The notes under the pieces were generated by a model. The model was not told the DNA's origin and ran no database searches. It saw only the letters and a program-made list of their open reading frames with translations. DNA of 64,000 bases, taken from NCBI RefSeq assembly GCF_000169375.1, contig NZ_AAXY01000003.1:1-64000 (forward strand). Direction: 5' to 3'. Positions within the stretch are counted from its first letter, which is position 1. Each line of letters begins with the position of its first letter. This DNA is from Marinobacter sp. ELB17. GTDB taxonomy: Bacteria > Pseudomonadota > Gammaproteobacteria > Pseudomonadales > Oleiphilaceae. Shown piece after piece: positions 1,572 to 39,558 of the stretch. Both the position numbers and the translations under genes were made by a program.

Positions 1572-1982
1572 GAATTAAAACAGATGTATGTTGCCAACGG
1601 CGTCGCCAGCGCCGCTACACAGTTTGCGGATCGTACAGAGAATGCCGTAATTTGGAATGTGGGTGGCAATCGCATCATCAACTTTGCCGGGGGTATCGGG
1701 GTATTAAACATTGGCCATTGCCACCCGAAAGTTATGGCGGCGGCTCAGGCTCAGGTGGCACGCCTGATGTACACCTGTCAGACCGTAATTCCCTATGCCG
1801 GGTACGTCAGAGTCGCTGAGGCGGCCATGTGCAGGCTGGCGCGCGCGAAGGGATTGATTCTGATTGCTTGTGGTTTTTACGGCAACACACTTCGTTTCCT
1901 GATGCCGGTCACCGTTGAAGAAGAGGTGCTAGACGAAGGCCTGGCAATCGTCGAGGCATGTCTTGCGGAGCTTGCGGCTTAA
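1572..1982 (+). pseudogene. gabT: 4-aminobutyrate aminotransferase with large internal deletion
   Basis: The first ~80 codons match the N-terminus of GabT, the PLP-dependent transaminase that starts GABA catabolism (FADRTENA, then FAGGIGVLNIGHCHPKV). The frame then jumps to the extreme C-terminus (ARAKGLILIACGFYGN, then a LDEGLAIVE tail). An intact enzyme has about 425 residues; this frame encodes about 135, so roughly 290 residues including the PLP-binding lysine are gone. The original start also seems lost: homology begins before ATG 1584 and a stop lies at 1566. With the truncated gabD just upstream, the GABA-to-succinate route at this locus is dead. Confidence 0.82.
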
Positions 1983-2601: not shown

Positions 2602-5088
2602 TCAATACGTCTTCAGTGTGGCTTGGGGGATTTCAATGTTTTTTCTACTCTTCAAAAACTCCGTCATCTCCGCTACTGGCAACGGCCGGCACAGCAGGTA
2701 GCCCTGAAGTTGATCACACCCTTCCTCCGCCAGGCGAGCCGCTTGCTCGGGCGTTTCGACACCCTCAGCGGTTGACTGTAACCCCAGACTTTTAGCAATA
2801 AACAGAACAGCCGAAACGATGGCTGCATCTTTCGGGTCTACCAGCATGTCTCGCACGAAGCTTTTATCGATTTTGAGTTTGCCTATGGGCAACTCCTGCA
2901 AAAGGCTCAAAGAAGAGTAACCAGTACCAAAATCGTCCAGTGAAATAGTGACACCTTTTCGACGCATTGCGTTCAAATCGCCGATGACTTCCGGCCGAAT
3001 TCTCATCAGAGCGGTTTCTGTAATTTCGAGCTCCAGCTGCCAAGGGCGAAGCCCGTTATCCTTCAATACCTGGTCAACAATCGTGACAAGGTCTTGGCGC
3101 TGTAACTGTATCGCGGAGACATTGACGGAAACACACGCGTCGGTGAACCCCGCGGCATGCCATGTGCTCAATTGACGCCCCGCCTCACGCAGAACCCACT
3201 CACCCAGCGGCAGGATTAAACCGCTCTCCTCGGCGACAGGAATAAACCTGTCGGGCGGAATAATGCCGTCAAGCGGATCATTCCAGCGTAGCAGGGCCTC
3301 AAGCCCAACAATTTTGCCTGTTCTGGCCTGTACCAGCGGCTGATAATAAAGTACCAGCTCGTTGTTTTTTAATGCACGCCTCAGCCTGCCTTCCAGCGAT
3401 ATGTGTTCGAGCGCCGCAAGGTTGTAGGACGCAGAATAAAACTGAAAATTGTTACGCCCCTGTGACTTGGCCTGGTACATGGCGGCATCGGCGCGCTTTA
3501 TCAGGTCATCCACATCACTACCGTCACTGGGAAACAGCGAAATCCCGATACTGCAACCGCTGTATATTTCATTCTCATTAAAATAAAACGGCAGCTTCAT
3601 GATATCCAAAATACGCGAGGCAACCTTAGCCGCATCCCGGGAGCTGCTAACGTTCGATAGCAAAACAACAAACTCGTCGCCGCCCAGACGAGCGAGCACA
3701 TCCAACGTATTTTGAGAGACTTCCTGGTGGATAACATCTTCCGCCCGCAGAACGACTTGAAGACGGATTGCCATTTCCATGAGGAGTTGATCGCCCACTT
3801 GGTGCCCCAAGGTGTCGTTAACTCGCTTGAAGTTGTCCAGATCAAGGAACAATACGGCCATCCTGCGGCTCTCGCGGTGGGCTAGAGAGATCATGCAGCG
3901 CAAGGTCTCATGAGCGCGAAATCGATTAGGCAAGCCGGTCAGGCTGTCGTGATAGGCCAAACGCTCGACTCTGACGCGTGATTTTTCCAGGTTGCCGGCC
4001 ATCTCTTGAAAACTCAACCCCAACTTGCCCAGCTCGTCGCTGGTCGATAACGCAATCGTGGGTGCCAGGTTTCCACGCCCGATCTCGCGAACGGCGCCCA
4101 TCAACTGTTTTAATGGGCGAACCATAAGAACATTCATGGAAATCAACAGCGCAAAAATCAACAGCACTATGGTGCCAAGTACGATCCAGCCAACACTATT
4201 ACCCAGCCGCTGGCTTTCTTCGAGCAGCTCTTCCTTCGGCAGTATGCCGATCAGCAGCAGGCCCTCGTGCAAGCGCCGGGTCGCTAACAGACTGTCCGCC
4301 TCTTGATAGAGCGTAGGTACAAGCTCCTCGCCTTTCCCTGTCCCTAAAGCCTTCTTCAACAGTGGCGCCGATATGGTCTGGCCCAGCTGGGAGGGGTCAT
4401 GATGGAAAAGAATTTTGCCGTCTGAATTGACGATTAACGTATGGCCATTTTCACCCATCCGGCTGCCGGCCATCTGCTCCGCCATGAAACCCAGCCCCAT
4501 GGTGACTACCAGATAACCTCGCAGCGCCGGCTTGCCGTTTAGCGGGTCTTGAGTAGCCAAGTCGATCAGACGAACGGGCCGCGCGACCTGTAGCGATACC
4601 GTATAACTGTCAGGAGGAGTGGAAACCTGAACAAATGCATCGCCCTTGAACCGGCTGAGTTCTTGAAAGAACGGTGTCTCGCCCTCTTCTTCGGTGATAT
4701 TGGGTATCGGTATCAGGGTGGTACGAGCGTCTTCATAGCCATCGGGTAGCAGGAAGCGGATCTCGGTGTAATCGGGATAGGCGCGCAGATAGCTGGAGAA
4801 CAACTTCAACAACGAAGGCAGCATCAGTACATACCGCTCTTCCTCGTCTTCCGTCAGCGCGTAAGCGCGCATCAGCGAGGCATCGGCAAACAGTTTGGCG
4901 TTCGCTTTGGCAACGTCCTGATGCATCTGGAAATTGCGCGCCATTTGATCCATTAATGTTGTCATCTGGATCGAACTGCGCTCTACCGCCGTTGAACGCA
5001 GCTGATCGTAGGCGAGCCACCCTAATATCAACAGAGGAATAACCGCTAGGGGTACAACAACCAATAGTACCTTGGCGTGAAGACGCAT
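2602..5088 (-). CDS. MbaA-like GGDEF-EAL protein with periplasmic sensor domain
   Basis: An 828-residue inner-membrane cyclic-di-GMP enzyme. Layout: TM helix about 6-27, periplasmic Cache-like region about 30-295, second TM about 299-323, HAMP about 324-375, GGDEF about 376-550 with intact GGDEF at 469-473, EAL about 565-815 with EALLRW at 597-602 and a later DDFGTGYSS. The GGDEF signature lacks the upstream RxxD product-inhibition site (NTLD instead). Both catalytic motifs look usable, so it may make or break c-di-GMP depending on input. It lies 3 bases after the second PotD-like gene and is almost certainly cotranscribed with both binding proteins. Vibrio MbaA has the same architecture and is controlled by the PotD-like NspS. 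Equivalence to MbaA is inferred from architecture and neighbours only. Confidence 0.85.
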   Translation of the reverse strand: MRLHAKVLLVVVPLAVIPLLILGWLAYDQLRSTAVERSSIQMTTLMDQMARNFQMHQDVAKANAKLFADASLMRAYALTEDEEERYVLMLPSLLKLFSSYLRAYPDYTEIRFLLPDGYEDARTTLIPIPNITEEEGETPFFQELSRFKGDAFVQVSTPPDSYTVSLQVARPVRLIDLATQDPLNGKPALRGYLVVTMGLGFMAEQMAGSRMGENGHTLIVNSDGKILFHHDPSQLGQTISAPLLKKALGTGKGEELVPTLYQEADSLLATRRLHEGLLLIGILPKEELLEESQRLGNSVGWIVLGTIVLLIFALLISMNVLMVRPLKQLMGAVREIGRGNLAPTIALSTSDELGKLGLSFQEMAGNLEKSRVRVERLAYHDSLTGLPNRFRAHETLRCMISLAHRESRRMAVLFLDLDNFKRVNDTLGHQVGDQLLMEMAIRLQVVLRAEDVIHQEVSQNTLDVLARLGGDEFVVLLSNVSSSRDAAKVASRILDIMKLPFYFNENEIYSGCSIGISLFPSDGSDVDDLIKRADAAMYQAKSQGRNNFQFYSASYNLAALEHISLEGRLRRALKNNELVLYYQPLVQARTGKIVGLEALLRWNDPLDGIIPPDRFIPVAEESGLILPLGEWVLREAGRQLSTWHAAGFTDACVSVNVSAIQLQRQDLVTIVDQVLKDNGLRPWQLELEITETALMRIRPEVIGDLNAMRRKGVTISLDDFGTGYSSLSLLQELPIGKLKIDKSFVRDMLVDPKDAAIVSAVLFIAKSLGLQSTAEGVETPEQAARLAEEGCDQLQGYLLCRPLPVAEMTEFLKSRKNIEIPQATLKTY

Positions 5089-5091
5089 GTG

Positions 5092-6171
5092 CTAGTACCA
5101 GGTCCAGTTAACGAGGCGCGAAAAAATCTCTGCACGAATTTTTTGCGTTCGGACAGGCAAGCGTTGATTGGTTTCCGACTTTTCCAGCGCCTTATCGTTC
5201 GGGTAGATGACCGGATCGCTCTTGAACTCAGCCGGAAGCAATGCTTCGGCGGCCAGATTCGGCGTGGCAGAATAGACGAACTGCGCCAGCCGCGCAGCGA
5301 TCTCCGGCTCGTTGAGAAAATTGATGAACTGTTTGGCGGCGGCCTTATTGGCAGAGGCACTGAGAACACTTATGTAATCGACCCAGATATTACTGCCCTC
5401 CTTCGGGAGGACAAACGCAATCTCGTCATGGTGTTCCTGGACCATCAAGGCATAGGAGTTATACATCATGCTCATGGCGACCTGGCCATTCACCAAAGCG
5501 GAATTTGCATCCCGGGAAACGGTTTTGTAGGTTTTAACGGCCGGCGCCTGCGCCTGGAGTAGCGCCTCGGCTTCCTTGAGCTCTTGTATGTCGGTGCTGT
5601 TGAGCGAATAACCCAATGCCTTCAGTGCCACGCCAATCAGGTCTCTGGTGCCGCTGATCATCGCCACCCTGCCATGCAGTTCCTCGGCGGGCTGCAACAA
5701 ATCCATCCAGCTTGTAACCGGAAAAGCTACCAGGTCCTGGCGGTAGGCTATGCCCAGCGTTCCCCAGAAGTAAGGCACGCTGTATACTTCGGCCTCCTCG
5801 TGGACAGTGCGCCAGCGCGGATCAATATGTGCCAGGTTGGGAATATCCGTTTCATCAATAGGTTCAAGCCAGCCACGTTTTGCCAGAATCCGAATCGAGG
5901 TGCCGTCGATAATGGCCAGATCAAAGCCTCTACCCCCCGTTCCAAGCAGAAGTTCATCCCGATCGGCATCAGACTCGAAATAGGTTTGTTTCACCGCAAC
6001 GCCGGTGCGTTGCTTGAACTCCTCCAGAATCTGCGGATCCATATAATCCGACCAATTAAGGAATAACAGTTCCGTTAGCTCTGACGCCTGCAGCGGACAG
6101 CTGAGCACAATCAAAGTAAGCGCCAAGCACAAGGCCTTGTATTTGCTCATGCAGGCTTTGTTTTTATTCAT
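5092..6171 (-). CDS. PotD/NspS-like periplasmic binding protein, copy 2
   Basis: A 359-residue family 1 solute-binding protein of the spermidine/putrescine type. A signal peptide (about 1-29, ending LQAS) is followed by LNWSDYMDP, the usual PotD strand 1. Later parts include PYFWGTLGIAYR, LGYSLNST and a C-terminal ATPNLAAEALL. No ABC permease or ATPase is nearby; the partner is the GGDEF-EAL gene 3 bases downstream. That points to ligand sensing rather than import, as in Vibrio NspS. It is a close paralogue of the gene upstream (copy 1, ending at 6204). No good ribosome-binding site was seen at ATG 6171; an ATG at 6150 is an alternative start. Confidence 0.82.
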   Translation of the reverse strand: MNKNKACMSKYKALCLALTLIVLSCPLQASELTELLFLNWSDYMDPQILEEFKQRTGVAVKQTYFESDADRDELLLGTGGRGFDLAIIDGTSIRILAKRGWLEPIDETDIPNLAHIDPRWRTVHEEAEVYSVPYFWGTLGIAYRQDLVAFPVTSWMDLLQPAEELHGRVAMISGTRDLIGVALKALGYSLNSTDIQELKEAEALLQAQAPAVKTYKTVSRDANSALVNGQVAMSMMYNSYALMVQEHHDEIAFVLPKEGSNIWVDYISVLSASANKAAAKQFINFLNEPEIAARLAQFVYSATPNLAAEALLPAEFKSDPVIYPNDKALEKSETNQRLPVRTQKIRAEIFSRLVNWTWY

Positions 6172-6203
6172 AATAACAGGCCAATAAGATGAGGGTTCGG
6201 CGG

Positions 6204-7250
6204 TCAGTAGACAATCCGCGAGAAAATGGCCGCGCGATTTTTATGAGCCCGAGGTGGCAAGCGACGATAGACTTCCGAGTTTTCCAGTGCCTCGCCACTC
6301 GGGTAGATGACAGGATCATTCCTGAAATCCACCGGCAGCAATGCTTCAGCAGCCAGATTAGGAGTCGCATAGTAAACGTACTGCGCAAGCCGCGCGGCTA
6401 TCTCCGGCTCATTGAGAAAATTGATGAACCGTTTGGCTTCAGCCTTTCGGTGGGAGGCGCTAAGAACGCTCAGATAGTCGGTCCAGATATTGCCGCCCTC
6501 TTTGGGAAGTACAAAAGCAATATTGTCGTTATATTCCTGCAACATCCGGGTATCGCCGTTGTACATCATGCTCATGACAACCTGGCCGGTTAACAACGCG
6601 GAATCTTCGTTCAGGGAAAGATAGCGGTAGGTGTTAACCGCCGGAGCCTGTGCTTCCAACAGCGCCTCGGCCTCTTTCATCTCATCCTCGTTGGTGCTGT
6701 TAAGCGAGTAACCCAAAGCCTTGAGGGCAACGCCGATCATATCCGCTCTATCGCCAATCATGCTGATTTTACCGTGCAGTTCCTCTACCGGCTGTAACAG
6801 GTCCATCCAGCTTGAAACCGCGAAGGGAACCAGATCCTGACGATAAACAATCCCAATCGTACCCCAGAAATAGGGCACGCCAAAATCTTCGGCTTTTTCA
6901 AATTCGATGCGCCGACGTGGATCAATGTGCTTCAGATTAGGGACACTCGACTCATCAAGGCGCTCGAGCCAACCGCGTTTCGCCAGAATTCTGATTGAGG
7001 CGCCATTGATGAGCGCCACATCGAAGCCTTTCCCCTCGGTCTCGAGCAGAAGTTGGTCCCTGGCAGTATCGGAATCGAAATAGCTTTGCTTTACCGTGAT
7101 ACCTGTGAGCTGTTCGAATTCCGCGATAATTTCCGGATCCATATAATTTGGCCAGTTAAGGAACACCAGTTTCTTCGATTCTGCCGCTTGCGCAAAAACA
7201 GCGGTAAAGAGCAAAAAAAATGTGATCACTTTAGCCTTACGAAAACACAT
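6204..7250 (-). CDS. PotD/NspS-like periplasmic binding protein, copy 1
   Basis: First gene of the three-gene unit. The start at 7250 is preferred because it gives a compact signal peptide (CFRKAKVITFF, cleavage near AQA) and has GGGGAAGG just upstream; 7265 is also possible. Mature sequence opens LVFLNWPNYMDP and parallels copy 2 almost motif by motif (KRGWLERLDE against KRGWLEPIDE, DLLQPVEELHGK against DLLQPAEELHGR), so the pair arose by tandem duplication. Residues around the expected polyamine pocket differ in places, so each copy may prefer a different ligand. Expected location: periplasm, acting on the sensor domain of the downstream GGDEF-EAL protein. Confidence 0.82.
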   Translation of the reverse strand: MCFRKAKVITFFLLFTAVFAQAAESKKLVFLNWPNYMDPEIIAEFEQLTGITVKQSYFDSDTARDQLLLETEGKGFDVALINGASIRILAKRGWLERLDESSVPNLKHIDPRRRIEFEKAEDFGVPYFWGTIGIVYRQDLVPFAVSSWMDLLQPVEELHGKISMIGDRADMIGVALKALGYSLNSTNEDEMKEAEALLEAQAPAVNTYRYLSLNEDSALLTGQVVMSMMYNGDTRMLQEYNDNIAFVLPKEGGNIWTDYLSVLSASHRKAEAKRFINFLNEPEIAARLAQYVYYATPNLAAEALLPVDFRNDPVIYPSGEALENSEVYRRLPPRAHKNRAAIFSRIVY

Positions 7251-7502
7251 AACCTTCCCCATCAATCACGGGCGACAATACTGTCGTCAACTCATTTCAG
7301 ACAATATTCTAAGTTTGTCTTCAGCCACAATTGGCGACATTCCGCCGTTGAACCTATGGAACCATTATCAGCCATAGTAACCCACACGATCTGAAAAAAT
7401 CAGCGTCTCCTGAAACTTCGCCAATGCCGGCCCGTAGCTGTCAGTAGCACATCCTGACAAGGTTCCAACTGGGTGGGCACAAACAACCGTTAGGAGTACG
7501 CA

Positions 7503-7757
7503 ATGAAAAAGCAAGTACAAACCACCGCACTGATGGCCGCCCTTATTTCTGGCGCACTGACCACCGGCATCGCTCAGGCGGGCAACTATGCCGAAGCCAA
7601 GGTATGGGCAGATAACCAGGCTGTTTCAGAAGGCACTGTGACCGCCAAAAAAGTCACCGCTGAAGCCAACGGCGGGCTGGACTATCGGGATGCCTCGCTC
7701 GGCGGTGGCGAGTTTTATATCCAATTGTTGTGTATTCCAGACCAAGGTTGCCGCTGA
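7503..7757 (+). CDS. small secreted protein, possibly truncated
   Basis: Eighty-four residues with a good signal peptide (KKQVQTTALMAALISGA, cleavage after AQA at about 26) and a ribosome-binding site (TTAGGAG) before ATG 7503. The mature part is short and rich in Ala, Glu and Gly. The last dozen residues change character just where a GGDEF-EAL remnant begins in another frame, so the 3' end may have been replaced by a deletion. No family was recognised. Confidence 0.5.
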   Translation: MKKQVQTTALMAALISGALTTGIAQAGNYAEAKVWADNQAVSEGTVTAKKVTAEANGGLDYRDASLGGGEFYIQLLCIPDQGCR

Positions 7758-8083
7758 TAAACAGTAAACCCGTTATGAGCAGCTGGCGCAGAAGACAGAG
7801 CGACCAAATACTCATGACCATTGGCCAGCGCCTGACCGCTCTGGTCATGCCCAAGGTGACCGTTGCCCGGTTGAATGGAGATGAATTTGGCCTGTTGGTC
7901 CCCGGCTACACCTACCGGAACGACGTCATTCAGCTGGCCGAACAAACTGGCCAGATCGTGCACCTGGGCCTTTGGATTCTCCGGCAAGCCTGCATAGAAA
8001 TAGCGGATTTTATTGCCAGCCGGGAGCAGGCACTGCGATATCTTGCAAGGGTACCTTTTTGCCCGACCAATGCCTTTGGCTGA
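7730..8083 (+). pseudogene. GGDEF-EAL gene remnant
   Basis: A 117-codon frame holds the core of a GGDEF domain (DQILMTIGQRLTAL, then RLNGDEFGLL with the first Gly replaced by Asn). It then jumps straight into an EAL-domain segment (IQLAEQTGQIVHLGLWILRQAC). About 150-200 residues that normally lie between these motifs are missing, as are the start and end of the gene. No ribosome-binding site is present. It is a deletion relic of a third c-di-GMP protein between the NspS/MbaA-like unit and the HD-GYP gene. Confidence 0.7.
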
Positions 8084-8244
8084 ATTGAAGAAGCTGCCAG
8101 ACCTCTTACCGGTCAATACGGCGACATAGAGTAAGCCGTAAAACCGGCTCACTTTTACCGAGCCCATGATTGCCAGCCTTGCGCTCTATCGCCACAAAGC
8201 GACGTGTGCAATTATATGAATACATAAAATATGGGGTTTTTTTG

Positions 8245-9567
8245 ATGCGCGACGAAACCGTAGAACTTGAGATTGACGTCTCTGAGCTTCGGCTGGGCAT
8301 GCGCGTTATTCGTCTTGATTGCGTCTGGGAGGATACCGATTTTCTCTTTCAGGGATTCATTATTCAAAGTCGTGACGAGATCGACGCCCTCCAGACACAG
8401 TGCCGCAAGGTAGTTATCGAAGGTAAGGTGAAACGTGAATTTGACAAGATTCCTCAAGCCCCTTTGGATAAGCCCGATACAGCCTATTTCCAGCGGTTCT
8501 CAACGAATTCCGGGAACACCGGCACCACCAAAAAATCAGGAAAAAAACCACACCCGAACGCCCAGCGCAGCGCCAGGCGCGCTACCTACATCAACAAGGT
8601 GGATGTAAATACCGAAATTCGCACAGTCACCAATCACTACGCTGAAGCAAAATCCGTTGCCGCCGGCATCATGGCCGGCTTGCGAGTAGGGCGAGCTCTT
8701 GATATCAATCGTGCGCGCGAGGTGGTGAATAACTGCGTTGACAGTATTCTGAGAAACAACGATGCCCTGCTGTTGCTGATTAAATTAAAGCAGAAGGATG
8801 ACTACACCGCAGAGCACAGTTTGAACGTGTCGATTCTGTCTGCGGCGTTTGGCAAGCGCCTAGGGTTGCTAGAAGAGGAGATCCGTACGCTCGGACTGTG
8901 CGGTTTGTTACACGACATTGGCAAAACAAAAATACCCCTGGAAATTCTTCAAAAGTCAGGCGGGCTGACACCCCAGGAGTACTGCATAATGCAGAACCAC
9001 GCTAACTGGGGGCGCGACATGTTAATGGCGCTACCAAAAGTGGTTCATGCCACAATCGATGTTGCCTATAACCACCATGAACGTCTGGATGGCCGCGGCT
9101 ACCCTCGCGGCCTGGTGGATTATCAGATCCCCTATAACGCGAAAATCGTAGCCATCGCTGACACCTACGATGCTATCACCAGCAACCGGGCTTATGATAG
9201 CGCCCGTTCATCCATGAGCGCGCTCGAAACTATTCACCGGTTGCGCGGTACGCAGTTTGATTCGGAGCTTGCTATGGAGTTCATCCTGATGATCGGCATT
9301 TACCCGCCCGGCTCCATCGTAGAACTGAAAACCGGCGAAATCGCCATTGTACTCACCAGCAACCCCAAAAACCGGCGCAAACCGCGGATTATACTGGTCA
9401 GAACGGCCGACAAAAAACGTATACCAAAATACGCGACGCTGGATTTAGACCTTCACCCGAAAACCGACAGCGGCGAACTGTTCACCATCTCCAAAGAATT
9501 GCCAGATGGCGCCTTCGGTGTGTTCATTCAGCGTTTTATTGAAAACGGGCTGGTACTTAACTATTAA
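8245..9567 (+). CDS. HD-GYP cyclic-di-GMP phosphodiesterase
   Basis: A 440-residue cytoplasmic protein. The N-terminal ~130 residues match the DUF3391 segment often found before HD-GYP domains (VSELRLGMRVIRLD). The HD-GYP domain occupies about 185-370, with HDIGK near 223-227 and HHERLDGRGYP near 277-287, the metal-binding and signature motifs of c-di-GMP phosphodiesterases. A C-terminal ~70-residue extension follows. The start at 8245 is chosen because DUF3391 homology begins there; the frame is open to 8170. It lies beside the GGDEF-EAL remnant and close to the NspS/MbaA-like unit. Confidence 0.88.
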   Translation: MRDETVELEIDVSELRLGMRVIRLDCVWEDTDFLFQGFIIQSRDEIDALQTQCRKVVIEGKVKREFDKIPQAPLDKPDTAYFQRFSTNSGNTGTTKKSGKKPHPNAQRSARRATYINKVDVNTEIRTVTNHYAEAKSVAAGIMAGLRVGRALDINRAREVVNNCVDSILRNNDALLLLIKLKQKDDYTAEHSLNVSILSAAFGKRLGLLEEEIRTLGLCGLLHDIGKTKIPLEILQKSGGLTPQEYCIMQNHANWGRDMLMALPKVVHATIDVAYNHHERLDGRGYPRGLVDYQIPYNAKIVAIADTYDAITSNRAYDSARSSMSALETIHRLRGTQFDSELAMEFILMIGIYPPGSIVELKTGEIAIVLTSNPKNRRKPRIILVRTADKKRIPKYATLDLDLHPKTDSGELFTISKELPDGAFGVFIQRFIENGLVLNY

Positions 9568-35635: not shown

Positions 35636-36676
35636 TTAACGACCTGACTTCAGTTTTTCCCAATACTTGGCGTAAACCTGCATTGCTTCATCGCCAATGT
35701 CGGTCTGGAATTCAGCGTTCACCATGTCTGCCGCCGTGGGGTAGCTGGCGCGATTGTTGGCAACCGCATCGTCTAGCAGCTCACGGGCAGGCAGCACCGG
35801 TGTCGCATAGCCGATATCGGTGCTGATCAGGGCAGCAATTTCCGGGCGCAGCACAAAGCTGATGAACTTGTGGGCGGCATCTGGGTTCTTCGCATTCTTC
35901 GGAATAACGAAGCTGTCGAGCCACACGATAATGCCTTCTTCCGGATACACGTATTCCAGCGATTCCAGGACGTCTTTGCCCATCACCGCTTCACCGTTCC
36001 AGATCATGCCAATGTCCACTTCGCCTTCCAGAAACGGCATGCGCGGGGCATCAGAATTGAAGGTTCTTATCGAAGGCATCAGTTCGGTGAGCTTTTTATA
36101 AGCCTCTTCAATCTGCTGCGGATCGGTGCTATTACCGGAGTAACCCAACACCCGCAGTGCCATGTGGAACACTTCGCGCATGTCGTTGGTCAGAATGACC
36201 CGGCCGTTAAAGCGCTCCTCCCACAAATCCGCCCAGGCGGTGACCGGCTCACCGTCGATGGCGGCGATGTCTACGCCCAGCCCGGTGGTGCCCCACATGT
36301 AAGGCACGCTGTATTCATTGCCCTTATCGATGTCCAGATTGATCAGCTCCGGGTCAAGCTGGTCAAAGCCCTCAATCTTGCTGCGATCAATCGGCATCAG
36401 CAGGCCTTCGTTGCGCATTTTGCTCACGAAGTAGGTAGACGGCACGGCCAGATCGTAGGCGGCGCTGTCGTCCAGCAATTTCAAACGGGCGTACATGGCC
36501 TCGTTGCTGTCATAGGTGGTGTATACCACCTGTATACCGGTTTCTTCCTCGAAGCGGGTCATCACTTCCTGAGGCATATATTCAGACCAGTTGTACAGGT
36601 TCAGTACCTTGGGCTCTTCCGAGCTGCAGCCCACAAGGCCAGCCGTCAATATTCCCGCCAGTGCCAATTTTTTCAT
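35636..36676 (-). CDS. potD: polyamine ABC transporter substrate-binding lipoprotein
   Basis: A 346-residue spermidine/putrescine-binding protein of the PotD type. The start at 36676 gives a lipoprotein signal (LAGILTAGLVGCSS, Cys near 18). Conserved parts: LNLYNWSEYMPQ, YDSNEAMYARLK, PSTYFVSKMRNEG, NEYSVPYMWGTTGLG, FHMALRVLGYSGNSTDP and GMIWNGEAV. The ATG overlaps the potC stop (ATGA), so translation is coupled; AGGAAC lies upstream. Last gene of potABCD. Unlike the two NspS-like proteins earlier in the window, it sits with a complete transporter. Confidence 0.92.
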   Translation of the reverse strand: MKKLALAGILTAGLVGCSSEEPKVLNLYNWSEYMPQEVMTRFEEETGIQVVYTTYDSNEAMYARLKLLDDSAAYDLAVPSTYFVSKMRNEGLLMPIDRSKIEGFDQLDPELINLDIDKGNEYSVPYMWGTTGLGVDIAAIDGEPVTAWADLWEERFNGRVILTNDMREVFHMALRVLGYSGNSTDPQQIEEAYKKLTELMPSIRTFNSDAPRMPFLEGEVDIGMIWNGEAVMGKDVLESLEYVYPEEGIIVWLDSFVIPKNAKNPDAAHKFISFVLRPEIAALISTDIGYATPVLPARELLDDAVANNRASYPTAADMVNAEFQTDIGDEAMQVYAKYWEKLKSGR

Positions 36677-37440
36677 TGTTTGTTCCTCATCAATATCCAT
36701 TGCGACAACAACAGCATCACCAGTGAAAACACCAGTAACAAAGTGCCTAAAGCATTCACTTCAGGTTTCAGGCCCACACGCACCATGGAGTAGATGCGCA
36801 GGGGCAATATTTCGTAACTGGGTCCGCTAACAAAAGTGCTGACGACCACGTCATCCATGGACAGTGTAAAGCCCAGCAGCCAACCCGCCAGCAGCGCCGG
36901 CATAATCACCGGAATCAGCACGGTGCGAGTCATAGTGAAGTCGCTGGCGCCCAAATCCCGTGCAGCTTCCGGCAAACGCTCGTCAAATCCGCTGAGCCGC
37001 GCCATTACGGTAATCACTACAAACGGTAAACAGAAGGTGACGTGGGCCAGCAGTAACGACACATAGCCCAGCTGGATACCCGCCAGCAAAAACAGACCCA
37101 GCAAGGATATAGCCAATACGATCTCCGGGGACATCATCACCACAAACAACATGCCTTTCAGCGCTTTTTTGCCGCGAAAACGATAGCGATGAAGCGCCAG
37201 TGCGGTCAACGCGCCAATCAGGGTAGACACGGTAGCAGCCGTGAGCGCCAGGAACAGCGAGTTGCCCAAGGCTTTCATCATGGCGTAGTTGTTAAACAGC
37301 GATTCATACCAGCGCAGGCTAAGCCCGCCCCAGCTATAGCCTGTGCGTGAATTGTTAAACGAGAACACCACCAACACGGCGATGGGGATGTACAGAAGAA
37401 GGTAGACCAGTGCCAGGTAAGTCCGCGGTAGCCAGCGCAT
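36673..37440 (-). CDS. potC: polyamine ABC transporter permease
   Basis: A 255-residue inner-membrane permease with six helices. FNNSRTGYSWGGLSLRWYESLF near the start (in parts) and the EAA loop EAARDLGASDFTMTRTVLIPVIMPALLAG are typical for PotC/PotI. It pairs with PotB. Its start overlaps the potB stop (TGATG) and its stop overlaps the potD start. Confidence 0.92.
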   Translation of the reverse strand: MRWLPRTYLALVYLLLYIPIAVLVVFSFNNSRTGYSWGGLSLRWYESLFNNYAMMKALGNSLFLALTAATVSTLIGALTALALHRYRFRGKKALKGMLFVVMMSPEIVLAISLLGLFLLAGIQLGYVSLLLAHVTFCLPFVVITVMARLSGFDERLPEAARDLGASDFTMTRTVLIPVIMPALLAGWLLGFTLSMDDVVVSTFVSGPSYEILPLRIYSMVRVGLKPEVNALGTLLLVFSLVMLLLSQWILMRNKQ

Positions 37441-38300
37441 CAGGAACTCTCCTCGCCCAGGCGTTGTTTGCTCAGGCGGTGGGCGAACATCAACAGCGCC
37501 ATGGTCAGGGTCAACACGATGCTGGCGGCCGCACCAAAGGGCCAGTTGCGGGCATCCAGAAACTGATTTTTAATCACGTTGCCCACCAGAAGGTTGCGCG
37601 AGCCACCGAGTATGTCAGGCACAAAAAACAGCCCCATGGCCGGCAGCAACACCAGCATAACGCCGGCCAGAACACCCGGCAGGGTGAGCGGAATAATCAC
37701 ATTTTTGAAGGTGGCAAGGCGCCCTGCGCCCAGATCGTGGGAGGCTAATAGCACGTCCTGACGTAAATCATCAAACACCGCGTACAAGGGCAGAATCATA
37801 AACGGCAGCAGCAGATACACCAGCCCGATAATCACCGCGCCCTGGGTGTACAGCATTTGTAAGGGCTCAGAAATCCAACCCAGCCACAGCAGTGCACTGT
37901 TCAGCAGGCCGTTGGTGGCCAGAATCAGTTTCAGAGCGTAAACCCGCACCAGCGAATTGGTCCAGAAGGGTATGATCAATAAAAATATCAGCAGCATCTG
38001 CTGGCGTTTCTGCACTTTGGACAGCGCCCAGGCAAACGGATAGCCAATCAACAGGCATATCGCCGTGGTCAATGTCGCCATCCACAAGGAGTTTAAAAAC
38101 ACGTCCAGATACAGCGGATTGAACAACTGGCGGTAAGCATCCAGGTTCAGTGGCAAGGCGATAAACGTGGATGGGTCGCGGGTCATCACACTGGCACCCA
38201 CCACCAGCAGGTTGGGCGCCAGCACCAGAAACAGAAGCCAACCCCACACCAGCACCAGAACAGCGGTTTTAAAAGGCTGTAGCCTAATGCTCAGCATCAT
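37440..38300 (-). CDS. potB: polyamine ABC transporter permease
   Basis: A 286-residue permease with six helices: [24 protein letters not shown] (in parts), [18 protein letters not shown] and an EAA loop with [25 protein letters not shown] match PotB/PotH. The start at 38300 overlaps the end of potA by 17 bases, so translation is coupled. Forms the membrane channel with PotC. Confidence 0.92.
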
Positions 38301-39420
38301 CGGCGGCCTGCTCCTCTTCGTCGGTCAGCGGTTGGTCTTGTTCTTCGGCCAACAGCCATTCCCAGCCGTCTACCCAGCTAACCCGCACTTTCTCGCCAAT
38401 GTTGTAATCGAAAGTTGGGTCGTCTTCATCAAAAAACTCGCTGGCCATCACCTGGCTGCCGTCTTCCAGCTCGATCACCGAATCCAGAGTGCTGCCTTTG
38501 TAATTACGTTCGACAATCTCGCCGGCCACGCCTTCGCTGTCGTCTGGCGCCAGCACGCGGATGTCTTCCGGGCGCAGCAGTACGTGCAGTGACTGGTTCA
38601 GGGTGACACGGAAAGAGGGCTTGTTCAGTACCCGCTTCAGGCCGAACACATCCACGCTGATCTCGCGATCGCCAATGCTGGTGACCTGTCCCGGAAAAAA
38701 GTTGGTCTGCCCCACAAAACGCGCGGTGAATAAGTTGGCCGGGCGCTCGTAAACTTCCCGCGGTGTGCCCAGCTGTTGGATATAGCCGTCTTTCAGCACC
38801 GCAATGCGGTCTGACATAGACAGCGCTTCCTCCTGATCGTGGGTCACGAACACAAAGGTAATGCCCAGTTCACGCTGCAGGCGCTTGAGCTCTACCTGCA
38901 TGGTGCGGCGCAGCTTGTAATCCAGTGCTGACAAGGGTTCGTCCAGCAACAGCATTTTTGGACGCTTCACCACCGCGCGGGCGATCGCTACCCGTTGCTG
39001 CTGGCCGCCAGACAACTGATGCGGCTTACGCTTAACGAAATCTTCCAGCTGCACCATCGCCAGAACTTCTGCTACCCGTTCGCGGATTTCCGCCGTTGGG
39101 CGCTTTTCCATTTTCAAGCCATAGGCCACGTTGTCATACACTGACATGTGGGGAAAAAGGGCGTAACTCTGGAATACGGTATTGAGGGGGCGTTGCTCGG
39201 GAGGCTGGTCGGTAATGTCGACTCCGGCGAGGGTAACGGTGCCGTTATCGGGAAGTTCAAAACCCGCCATCATTCTCAACAGTGTGGTTTTGCCGCAACC
39301 GGAGGGGCCTAGTAGCGTGATGAACTCACCGTCAAAAATATCCAGCGTGAGCGAATCCAGTACGGTTTTACCGTCGAACTGTTTGCTGATTGTGCTCAGC
39401 GAAAGTAACGTTTTTTCCAT
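38284..39420 (-). CDS. potA: polyamine ABC transporter ATPase
   Basis: A 378-residue cytoplasmic ATPase. Walker [10 protein letters not shown] near 40, Q-loop [20 protein letters not shown], signature LSGGQQQR, Walker [12 protein letters not shown] and H-loop THDQEEA are all intact, and a C-terminal TOBE domain follows ([17 protein letters not shown]). The start at 39420 is chosen because homology begins at [12 protein letters not shown]; a longer frame to 39510 looks like read-through of upstream DNA. The protein ends in an acidic tail ([12 protein letters not shown]). First gene of potABCD, powered import of spermidine or putrescine. Confidence 0.93.
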
Positions 39421-39558
39421 CAAACCAGCCCAAATCGAAACGGTGTCACCGTGGGTGAACGCAAAAAGCAAAAGGGGCGTGAGGATAATCCACAACGCCC
39501 GCAGTTGCATTCTTTTTAACCAGTCTTTGACTCTGCCAAATCCTGGCGTTCCGCCTGT

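What the first reader, a model, noticed from the sequence alone, without database searches (positions are those of the whole stretch)
2602..7250. NspS-MbaA-like polyamine/c-di-GMP sensor with a duplicated binding protein
Seen: two tandem PotD-like periplasmic proteins, no ABC permease, and 3 bases on a GGDEF-EAL protein with a large periplasmic domain. Known: Vibrio NspS (PotD-like) regulates MbaA (GGDEF-EAL) in response to norspermidine and spermidine. Inference: this is the same kind of two-part receptor, but with two paralogous ligand-binding subunits that could respond to different polyamines or compete for one enzyme. The GGDEF domain has an intact signature and no RxxD site, so output logic may differ from MbaA. 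A true transporter-type potABCD is also present in the window for comparison.
Basis: partly seen in the sequence, partly recalled or inferred. Interest (0 to 1): 0.72.

Follow-up and report, generated by a model that had tools for sequence, protein, structure and literature searches.

The report
Twin-subunit polyamine sensor for c-di-GMP
In a Marinobacter bacterium, two sister binding proteins that are predicted to catch polyamines are encoded just ahead of a membrane protein that likely makes and breaks the biofilm signal c-di-GMP; one sister lacks an acidic residue of the predicted binding pocket that the other keeps, so the pair would let one receptor read two different signals.

Summary
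Confirmed: S2 (6204-7250), S1 (5092-6171) and D (2602-5088) lie in tandem on the minus strand; D is TM-dCache-TM-HAMP-GGDEF-EAL, and no permease gene is adjacent. Both binding proteins group with S. meliloti-type NspS, not with transporter-type PotDs (support 100/100), and share residues that transporters lack. The pair meets a published operational criterion for NspS-MbaA. D's sensor is a dCache; SmMbaA's periplasmic part looks like a distant, smaller relative (profile probability 81%, similar predicted topology). Seven of 12 Marinobacter relatives have one copy only; one of them keeps a remnant of S1. The same SBP-dCache module also sits on histidine kinases and SpoIIE-type phosphatases. Counter-evidence: 7 of 42 assessable distant sensors (4 GGDEF-EAL, 3 kinase-type) have no SBP beside them; two more sit at contig edges. 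Ligands, docking and effect on c-di-GMP are untested. A new variant (duplicated, asymmetric ligand subunits) of a known kind.

The parts
6204..7250 (-). S2: PotD/NspS-like periplasmic binding protein with the conserved pocket (348 aa; alternative TTG start at 7265)
5092..6171 (-). S1: paralogue of S2 (65% identical) with an altered pocket (359 aa)
2602..5088 (-). D: membrane receptor, TM-dCache-TM-HAMP-GGDEF-EAL, 828 aa
4342..4989 (-). dCache_1 periplasmic sensor of D (residues 34-249 by Pfam; the model extends the fold to about residue 284)
3985..4125 (-). HAMP of D (residues 322-368)
3448..3957 (-). GGDEF domain of D (residues 378-547), signature GGDEF intact, no RxxD
2683..3387 (-). EAL domain of D (residues 568-802), EALLRW, DDFGTGY, EGVET present
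5452..5454 (-). S1 Tyr240, at the position of NspS Asp236
6552..6554 (-). S2 Asp238 (counted from the TTG at 7265), at the position of NspS Asp236
35636..39510 (-). Comparator: transporter-type potABCD of the same genome, whose PotD falls on the transporter side of the tree

Best explanation
The three genes encode two PotD/NspS-like binding proteins (S2, S1) and a dCache-HAMP-GGDEF-EAL membrane protein (D) that likely work as one polyamine receptor of the NspS-MbaA kind, setting c-di-GMP from the periplasm. Inferred: ligand-loaded S2 or S1 docks on D's dCache domain; the movement passes through TM2 and HAMP and shifts D between c-di-GMP synthesis and breakdown. Shown by sequence: both catalytic signatures are intact; S2 keeps a pocket that is nearly invariant in its arm, whereas S1 has Tyr in place of the pocket Asp equivalent to NspS Asp236 and Gly at the PotD Asp168 position, while keeping Asp at the NspS Asp90 position where S2 has Asn. 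Inferred: S2 is the ancestral-type polyamine sensor, and S1 a retuned subunit that reports a different amine and competes for, or adds to, the same receptor.
Against: No ligand, docking or enzyme data. 4 of the 11 non-own sensors found in the class search carry GGDEF-EAL with no SBP match in the 2.6-6.9 kb held upstream, and 3 of the 33 strong phylum matches have none either, so the sensor may act alone or with an SBP encoded elsewhere. BLAST does not align D's periplasmic part with SmMbaA; a single D sequence (probability 0.5) and a kinase-only profile (1.6) do not detect it, so the relationship rests on one moderate profile match and a similar predicted topology. V. cholerae NspS and MbaA themselves were not obtained; the S. 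meliloti copies come from strain Ak57, taken as the studied genes by adjacency, overlap and length. NspS sits on a long branch. 19 of the 51 S1-arm rows keep the Asp, some of them apparently on one contig with an S2-type copy (inferred from equal contig lengths). S1 could still serve a transporter in trans.
Confidence: 0.77

Rival explanations
1. S1 is not a second sensor but a ligand-independent subunit: having lost the pocket Asp it stays in one state and sets the resting output of D, while S2 alone reports polyamine.
For: Tyr or Gly (once His) in place of the conserved Asp, lost several times, in only one row outside the S1 arm; further changes at the PotD Asp168 and Glu171 positions in the S1 arm.
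Against: Trp41 (43 of 43 readable rows), Trp261 (46 of 47) and Asp263 (47 of 47) equivalents stay conserved in a 47-row part of the S1 arm, and 35 of its 46 readable rows carry Asp at the NspS Asp90 position, which suggests a moved rather than an abolished amine site; S1 evolves under purifying selection.
Confidence: 0.3
2. S1 and S2 are transporter binding proteins that lost or never needed their own permease and feed PotABC in trans; the nearness to D is incidental.
For: PotD-like family; potABCD 28 kb away in the window.
Against: They fall outside the transporter-type PotDs, carry residues shared with NspS and rare in transporters, and gene order with the receptor is kept across 12 Marinobacter genomes and 7 distant gammaproteobacteria.
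Confidence: 0.06
3. D's dCache binds a small ligand by itself, and the SBPs only modulate or deliver it.
For: Many solved dCache domains bind small molecules directly, e.g. the amino-acid receptors; 7 relatives of the sensor have no SBP gene beside them.
Against: An SBP gene is adjacent in 28 of 31 assessable phylum loci, with kinase as well as SpoIIE outputs.
Confidence: 0.2
4. The two SBPs are redundant copies from a recent duplication with no separate role.
For: 7 of 12 Marinobacter genomes manage with one copy.
Against: S1 and S2 are 65% identical, form two arms that each hold Marinobacter and Halomonas-type sequences (names), and differ in the pocket.
Confidence: 0.15

Closest known systems
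NspS-MbaA of Vibrio cholerae and Sinorhizobium meliloti (PMC8079147, PMC8967002, PMC9993111; passages read)
   Same: PotD-like SBP gene directly before a TM-periplasmic-TM-HAMP-GGDEF-EAL gene; pocket residues largely shared (7 of 8 in S1 and in S2); lack of RxxD; PDE motifs present.
   Different: Two paralogous SBPs instead of one; canonical GGDEF instead of SGDEF, EAL instead of the EVL of Vc MbaA; sensor is a clear dCache_1, larger and only remotely like SmMbaA's; S1 lacks the Asp236 equivalent.
Sensor histidine kinases encoded beside an SBP gene, such as AgtS and AruS of Pseudomonas aeruginosa (PMC11113362; title, start of abstract and three passages seen, outcome not read)
   Same: An SBP gene near the receptor gene; the abstract states that many such kinases are activated by SBP binding.
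   Different: Other ligands (the title names gamma-aminobutyrate and 5-aminovalerate) and kinase output. Relatives of the present sensor nevertheless occur on kinases.
Transporter-type PotABCD / PotFGHI
   Same: Same SBP superfamily; pocket Trp and Asp conserved.
   Different: S1 and S2 lie on the other side of a fully supported branch, have no adjacent permease or ATPase gene, and have residues that transporters mostly lack.
dCache receptors that bind ligands directly (e.g. PctA, Mlp24)
   Same: Fold of the D sensor.
   Different: Here two SBP genes precede the receptor, pointing to indirect sensing.

Membership tests
NspS-MbaA system | Published operational criterion: at least 30% identity and 60% coverage to NspS and to MbaA, genes at most 20 bp apart (PMC9993111) | tested here: met
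   S1 36% over nearly all of SmNspS; D 32% over SmMbaA residues 249-769 of 790, i.e. 66%; 3 bases apart. SmNspS and SmMbaA from strain Ak57.
NspS-MbaA system | SBP falls with NspS, apart from transporter PotD | tested here: met
   100/100, 100*; NspS represented by three alphaproteobacterial sequences only, on a long branch.
NspS-MbaA system | Eight predicted norspermidine-contacting residues of Vc NspS | tested here: inconclusive
   7 of 8 in S1 (Asp236 is Tyr) and 7 of 8 in S2 (Asp90 is Asn), mapped through SmNspS; residue list from PMC9993111.
NspS-MbaA system | Receptor periplasmic domain homologous to that of MbaA | tested here: inconclusive
   No BLAST alignment; profile-profile probability 80.6 over the full length, above shuffles and three other receptor families; similar predicted topology.
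NspS-MbaA system | HAMP-GGDEF-EAL output with catalytic motifs | tested here: met
   GGDEF in place of SGDEF.
NspS-MbaA system | Polyamine binding, docking and change of c-di-GMP | not testable with these tools
   needs binding and reporter assays
PotD/PotF transporter SBPs | Gene beside cognate permease and ATPase genes | tested here: not met
   Window. Seven distant loci with an SBP over 400 bits: no PotA, PotB or PotC match in the stretch fetched.
PotD/PotF transporter SBPs | Phylogenetic placement among transporter SBPs | tested here: not met
dCache_1 sensors | Pfam dCache_1 over cut-off and dCache fold | tested here: met
   51 bits against 45; Foldseek and VIA matches to dCache domains.

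The most novel reading that the evidence does not exclude
One receptor with two competing ligand subunits acts as a comparator: S2 reads a fixed polyamine through a frozen pocket, while S1, its pocket repeatedly rebuilt, reads a changing second amine, and the ratio of loaded S1 to loaded S2 on the shared dCache domain sets c-di-GMP. The SBP-dCache pair is a portable input module that bacteria have mounted on GGDEF-EAL enzymes, histidine kinases and SpoIIE phosphatases.
Probability: 0.35. Interest if true: 0.78.

Novelty: new variant of a known kind. Interest (0 to 1): 0.56.

Why it matters
NspS-MbaA is a c-di-GMP circuit with a known outside signal, and how one binding protein tells similar polyamines apart is open. 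A natural system in which the job appears to be split between two paralogues, one frozen and one drifting in the pocket, gives paired proteins for testing ligand discrimination, docking and signal integration. That the same SBP-dCache input recurs on kinases and phosphatases gives a comparative set for finding the docking surface.

Tried and rejected
SBP-receptor fusion: the genome search reported open frames of about 990-1210 aa for six loci, but reading the junctions showed an in-frame stop between SBP and D in each of them; rejected.

D's sensor unrelated to MbaA's: first suggested by BLAST and Pfam, then weakened by profile comparison and predicted topology. A per-locus control planned printed no rows (its filter matched nothing); it was replaced by the three family profiles, of which the third matches D's dCache only weakly (17%).

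Finding Vibrio NspS/MbaA: LuxQ-periplasm domain as a Vibrio marker (recalled) in 369 gammaproteobacterial genomes gave no match over its cut-off; SmMbaA periplasmic part gave 0 of 369, with no positive control, so it shows nothing. The Vibrio SBP found on a plasmid falls on the transporter side.

VIA look at the full-length SmMbaA model was filled by EAL and GGDEF chains and says nothing on its periplasmic part. Promoter scan: 1 site found, 3.9 expected; nothing usable. Chimera scan of single-SBP genomes: an S1-like C-terminal end on an S2-like body rests on one or two columns; not claimed. Three long-branch or unplaced rows (Own_L005, Phyllo_PotD, G261_orph) were dropped before the tree; G261_orph had fallen with the signalling side. 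Four weak phylum matches (58-64 bits, partial) were not fetched. Partial SBPs at contig edges in two phylum loci (L169, L172) were counted as adjacent.
Full report
What is there. Three minus-strand genes: S2 (6204-7250), S1 (5092-6171) and D (2602-5088). S1 and D are 3 bases apart; S2 and S1 32. S1 and S2 are 65% identical. D carries dCache_1, HAMP, GGDEF and EAL. The genome is a Marinobacter by kinship: same-genus genomes in the genome search have contigs of the same lengths as named Marinobacter records.

Gene order. 12 of 124 genomes of the genus (own included) have an SBP at E<=1e-60, and in all 12 D follows directly (in G062 the operon is split over two contig ends). Five of the 12 have S2-S1-D (window, G026, G124, G129, G062); seven have one SBP, and one of these, G106, keeps a 48-residue remnant of S1 between S2 and D. 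A Halomonas record (L029) has three SBPs before D, the first interrupted by an in-frame stop near its start. In 369 gammaproteobacterial genomes, 16 (own included) had SBP matches at E<=1e-60. All 7 non-own SBPs over 400 bits precede a dCache-GGDEF-EAL gene; of the 12 weaker matches (at most 251.3 bits) none does, and 6 of these lie with potABC.

Which kind of SBP. A maximum-likelihood tree of 46 SBPs puts the 26 SBPs of this type with three NspS sequences (S. meliloti strain Ak57; Sinorhizobium K101 and Shinella, which lie beside MbaA-like genes), apart from 16 transporter-type and other PotD-like rows, support 100/100. One unclassified SBP on a very long branch (G261_orph) also fell on the signalling side. 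The split persists with 26 more signalling SBPs. Positions fixed in 52 of 52 signalling SBPs and 3 of 3 NspS but in at most 3 of 12 rows labelled transporter include Arg71, Arg144, Asp146, Pro161 and Gln208 of S1; 7 of those 12 lie beside potABC genes, the other 5 are labelled by their place in the tree. Pocket: of the eight contact residues predicted for V. cholerae NspS (list in PMC9993111, passages read), S1 keeps all but Asp236 (Tyr240) and S2 all but Asp90 (Asn87). Asp70 and Phe131, which none of the transporter-type rows has, are kept in both.

The receptor. Model of the D sensor: pLDDT 86.8, a dCache. SmMbaA aligns with D only from TM2 on by BLAST and has no dCache_1 match. A profile comparison gives probability 80.6 over the whole periplasmic part, transmembrane helices included. 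Twenty column shuffles of the periplasmic columns scored at most 30.4 against 45.7, and three other receptor families gave 0.2, 0.6 and 1.3% (the first two match D's dCache at 97.6 and 98.3%, the third only at 17%). A single D sequence (0.5) and a kinase-only profile (1.6) do not detect MbaA. The predicted helix and strand order of SmMbaA 1-297 follows that of D 1-337, with fewer elements in the membrane-proximal half. I read this as distant homology, not as proven. All 14 D proteins examined keep GGDEF and none has RxxD; 13 of 14 match the four EAL patterns that I searched for, and the distant L033 protein matches two of the four.

The duplication. In a tree of 150 SBP rows (145 different), S1-type and S2-type proteins form two arms (SH-aLRT 96 and 91), each with Marinobacter and Halomonas-type members (names), so the duplication predates that split or moved between them. 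The residue at NspS Asp236 is not Asp in 32 of 51 rows of the S1 arm, 1 of 61 of the S2 arm and 0 of 38 elsewhere; the tree needs 6 changes, and starred branches force at least 4. In the S2 arm the PotD Asp168 position is Asp in 61 of 61 and the NspS Asp90 position is Asn in 58 of 61; a 47-row part of the S1 arm has Asp at these two positions in 26 of 46 and 35 of 46 readable rows. Asp263 is kept in all 150 rows. 19 of the 51 S1-arm rows keep Asp236, so the loss is a tendency of that arm, not a rule. S1, S2 and D evolve under purifying selection (dN/dS 0.07-0.24 in 18 pairwise comparisons of four genomes).

A portable module. In 334 genomes of the phylum, 27 (own included) had sensor matches at E<=1e-15. 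Of the 33 strong non-own matches fetched, 28 have an SBP gene beside the sensor (27 directly upstream on the same strand, two of them cut by a contig edge; 1 divergent), 2 are at contig edges and cannot be judged, and 3 have none. 27 of the 33 have a histidine-kinase match within 200 bases after the sensor; of the six others, five were tested: four carry SpoIIE and one a class III cyclase domain (the cyclase locus is one of the two at a contig edge). In the class search, 7 of 11 non-own sensors had an SBP and 4 had none. Among 116 proteins with this sensor, 14 carry a histidine-kinase ATPase domain by Pfam.

Mechanism. NspS-MbaA gives the template: NspS bound to norspermidine is proposed to associate with MbaA, and norspermidine and spermidine change c-di-GMP in opposite directions (PMC8079147, PMC8967002, passages read). 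Here two ligand subunits share one receptor. That S2 and S1 bind polyamines, dock on D and change c-di-GMP is inference. The genome has an nspC-family match (carboxynorspermidine decarboxylase, name recalled) above its cut-off, so it likely makes spermidine or norspermidine.

Novelty. Searches for Marinobacter with NspS (0 papers), for two periplasmic binding proteins with a diguanylate cyclase (1 paper, on pyoverdine biosynthesis), for SBP, dCache, histidine kinase and polyamine together (1 review), and the listings showed no title or abstract on a duplicated NspS; PMC9993111 mentions neither Marinobacter nor duplication in its main text. Only open-licence papers were searched. Verdict: a new variant of a known kind.

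Noticed in passing
window 7748-8117: Broken remnants of a GGDEF-EAL gene upstream of S2; a relative (G124) has an open frame of 821 aa within L051 10301-13400 that matches these pieces.
   Followed up: partly
window 8170-9567 (+): HD-GYP-like protein (DUF3391 plus HD_5), a possible c-di-GMP phosphodiesterase, next to the remnant and the sensor operon.
   Followed up: no
window 1584-1982 (+): Short frame matching only positions 11-77 of the aminotransferase class III profile behind an aldehyde dehydrogenase gene: probably a truncated gene.
   Followed up: no
L163-L195, several genomes of another class of the phylum: SBP-dCache modules on histidine kinases and SpoIIE-type phosphatases, in several genomes two matches each.
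   Followed up: partly
L090 5113-7256: A frame that by eye looks like a membrane protein with a large extracytoplasmic part and no output domain overlaps a PotD-like SBP gene (no family search was run on it).
   Followed up: no
L029 5540-6585: First of three SBP genes in a Halomonas record has an in-frame stop close to its start; close relatives without it exist.
   Followed up: no
S1 residue 217 and S2 residue 118, window: S1 lacks a Tyr and S2 lacks a Trp that most signalling SBPs have (49 and 48 of 52): possible docking differences between the two subunits.
   Followed up: no
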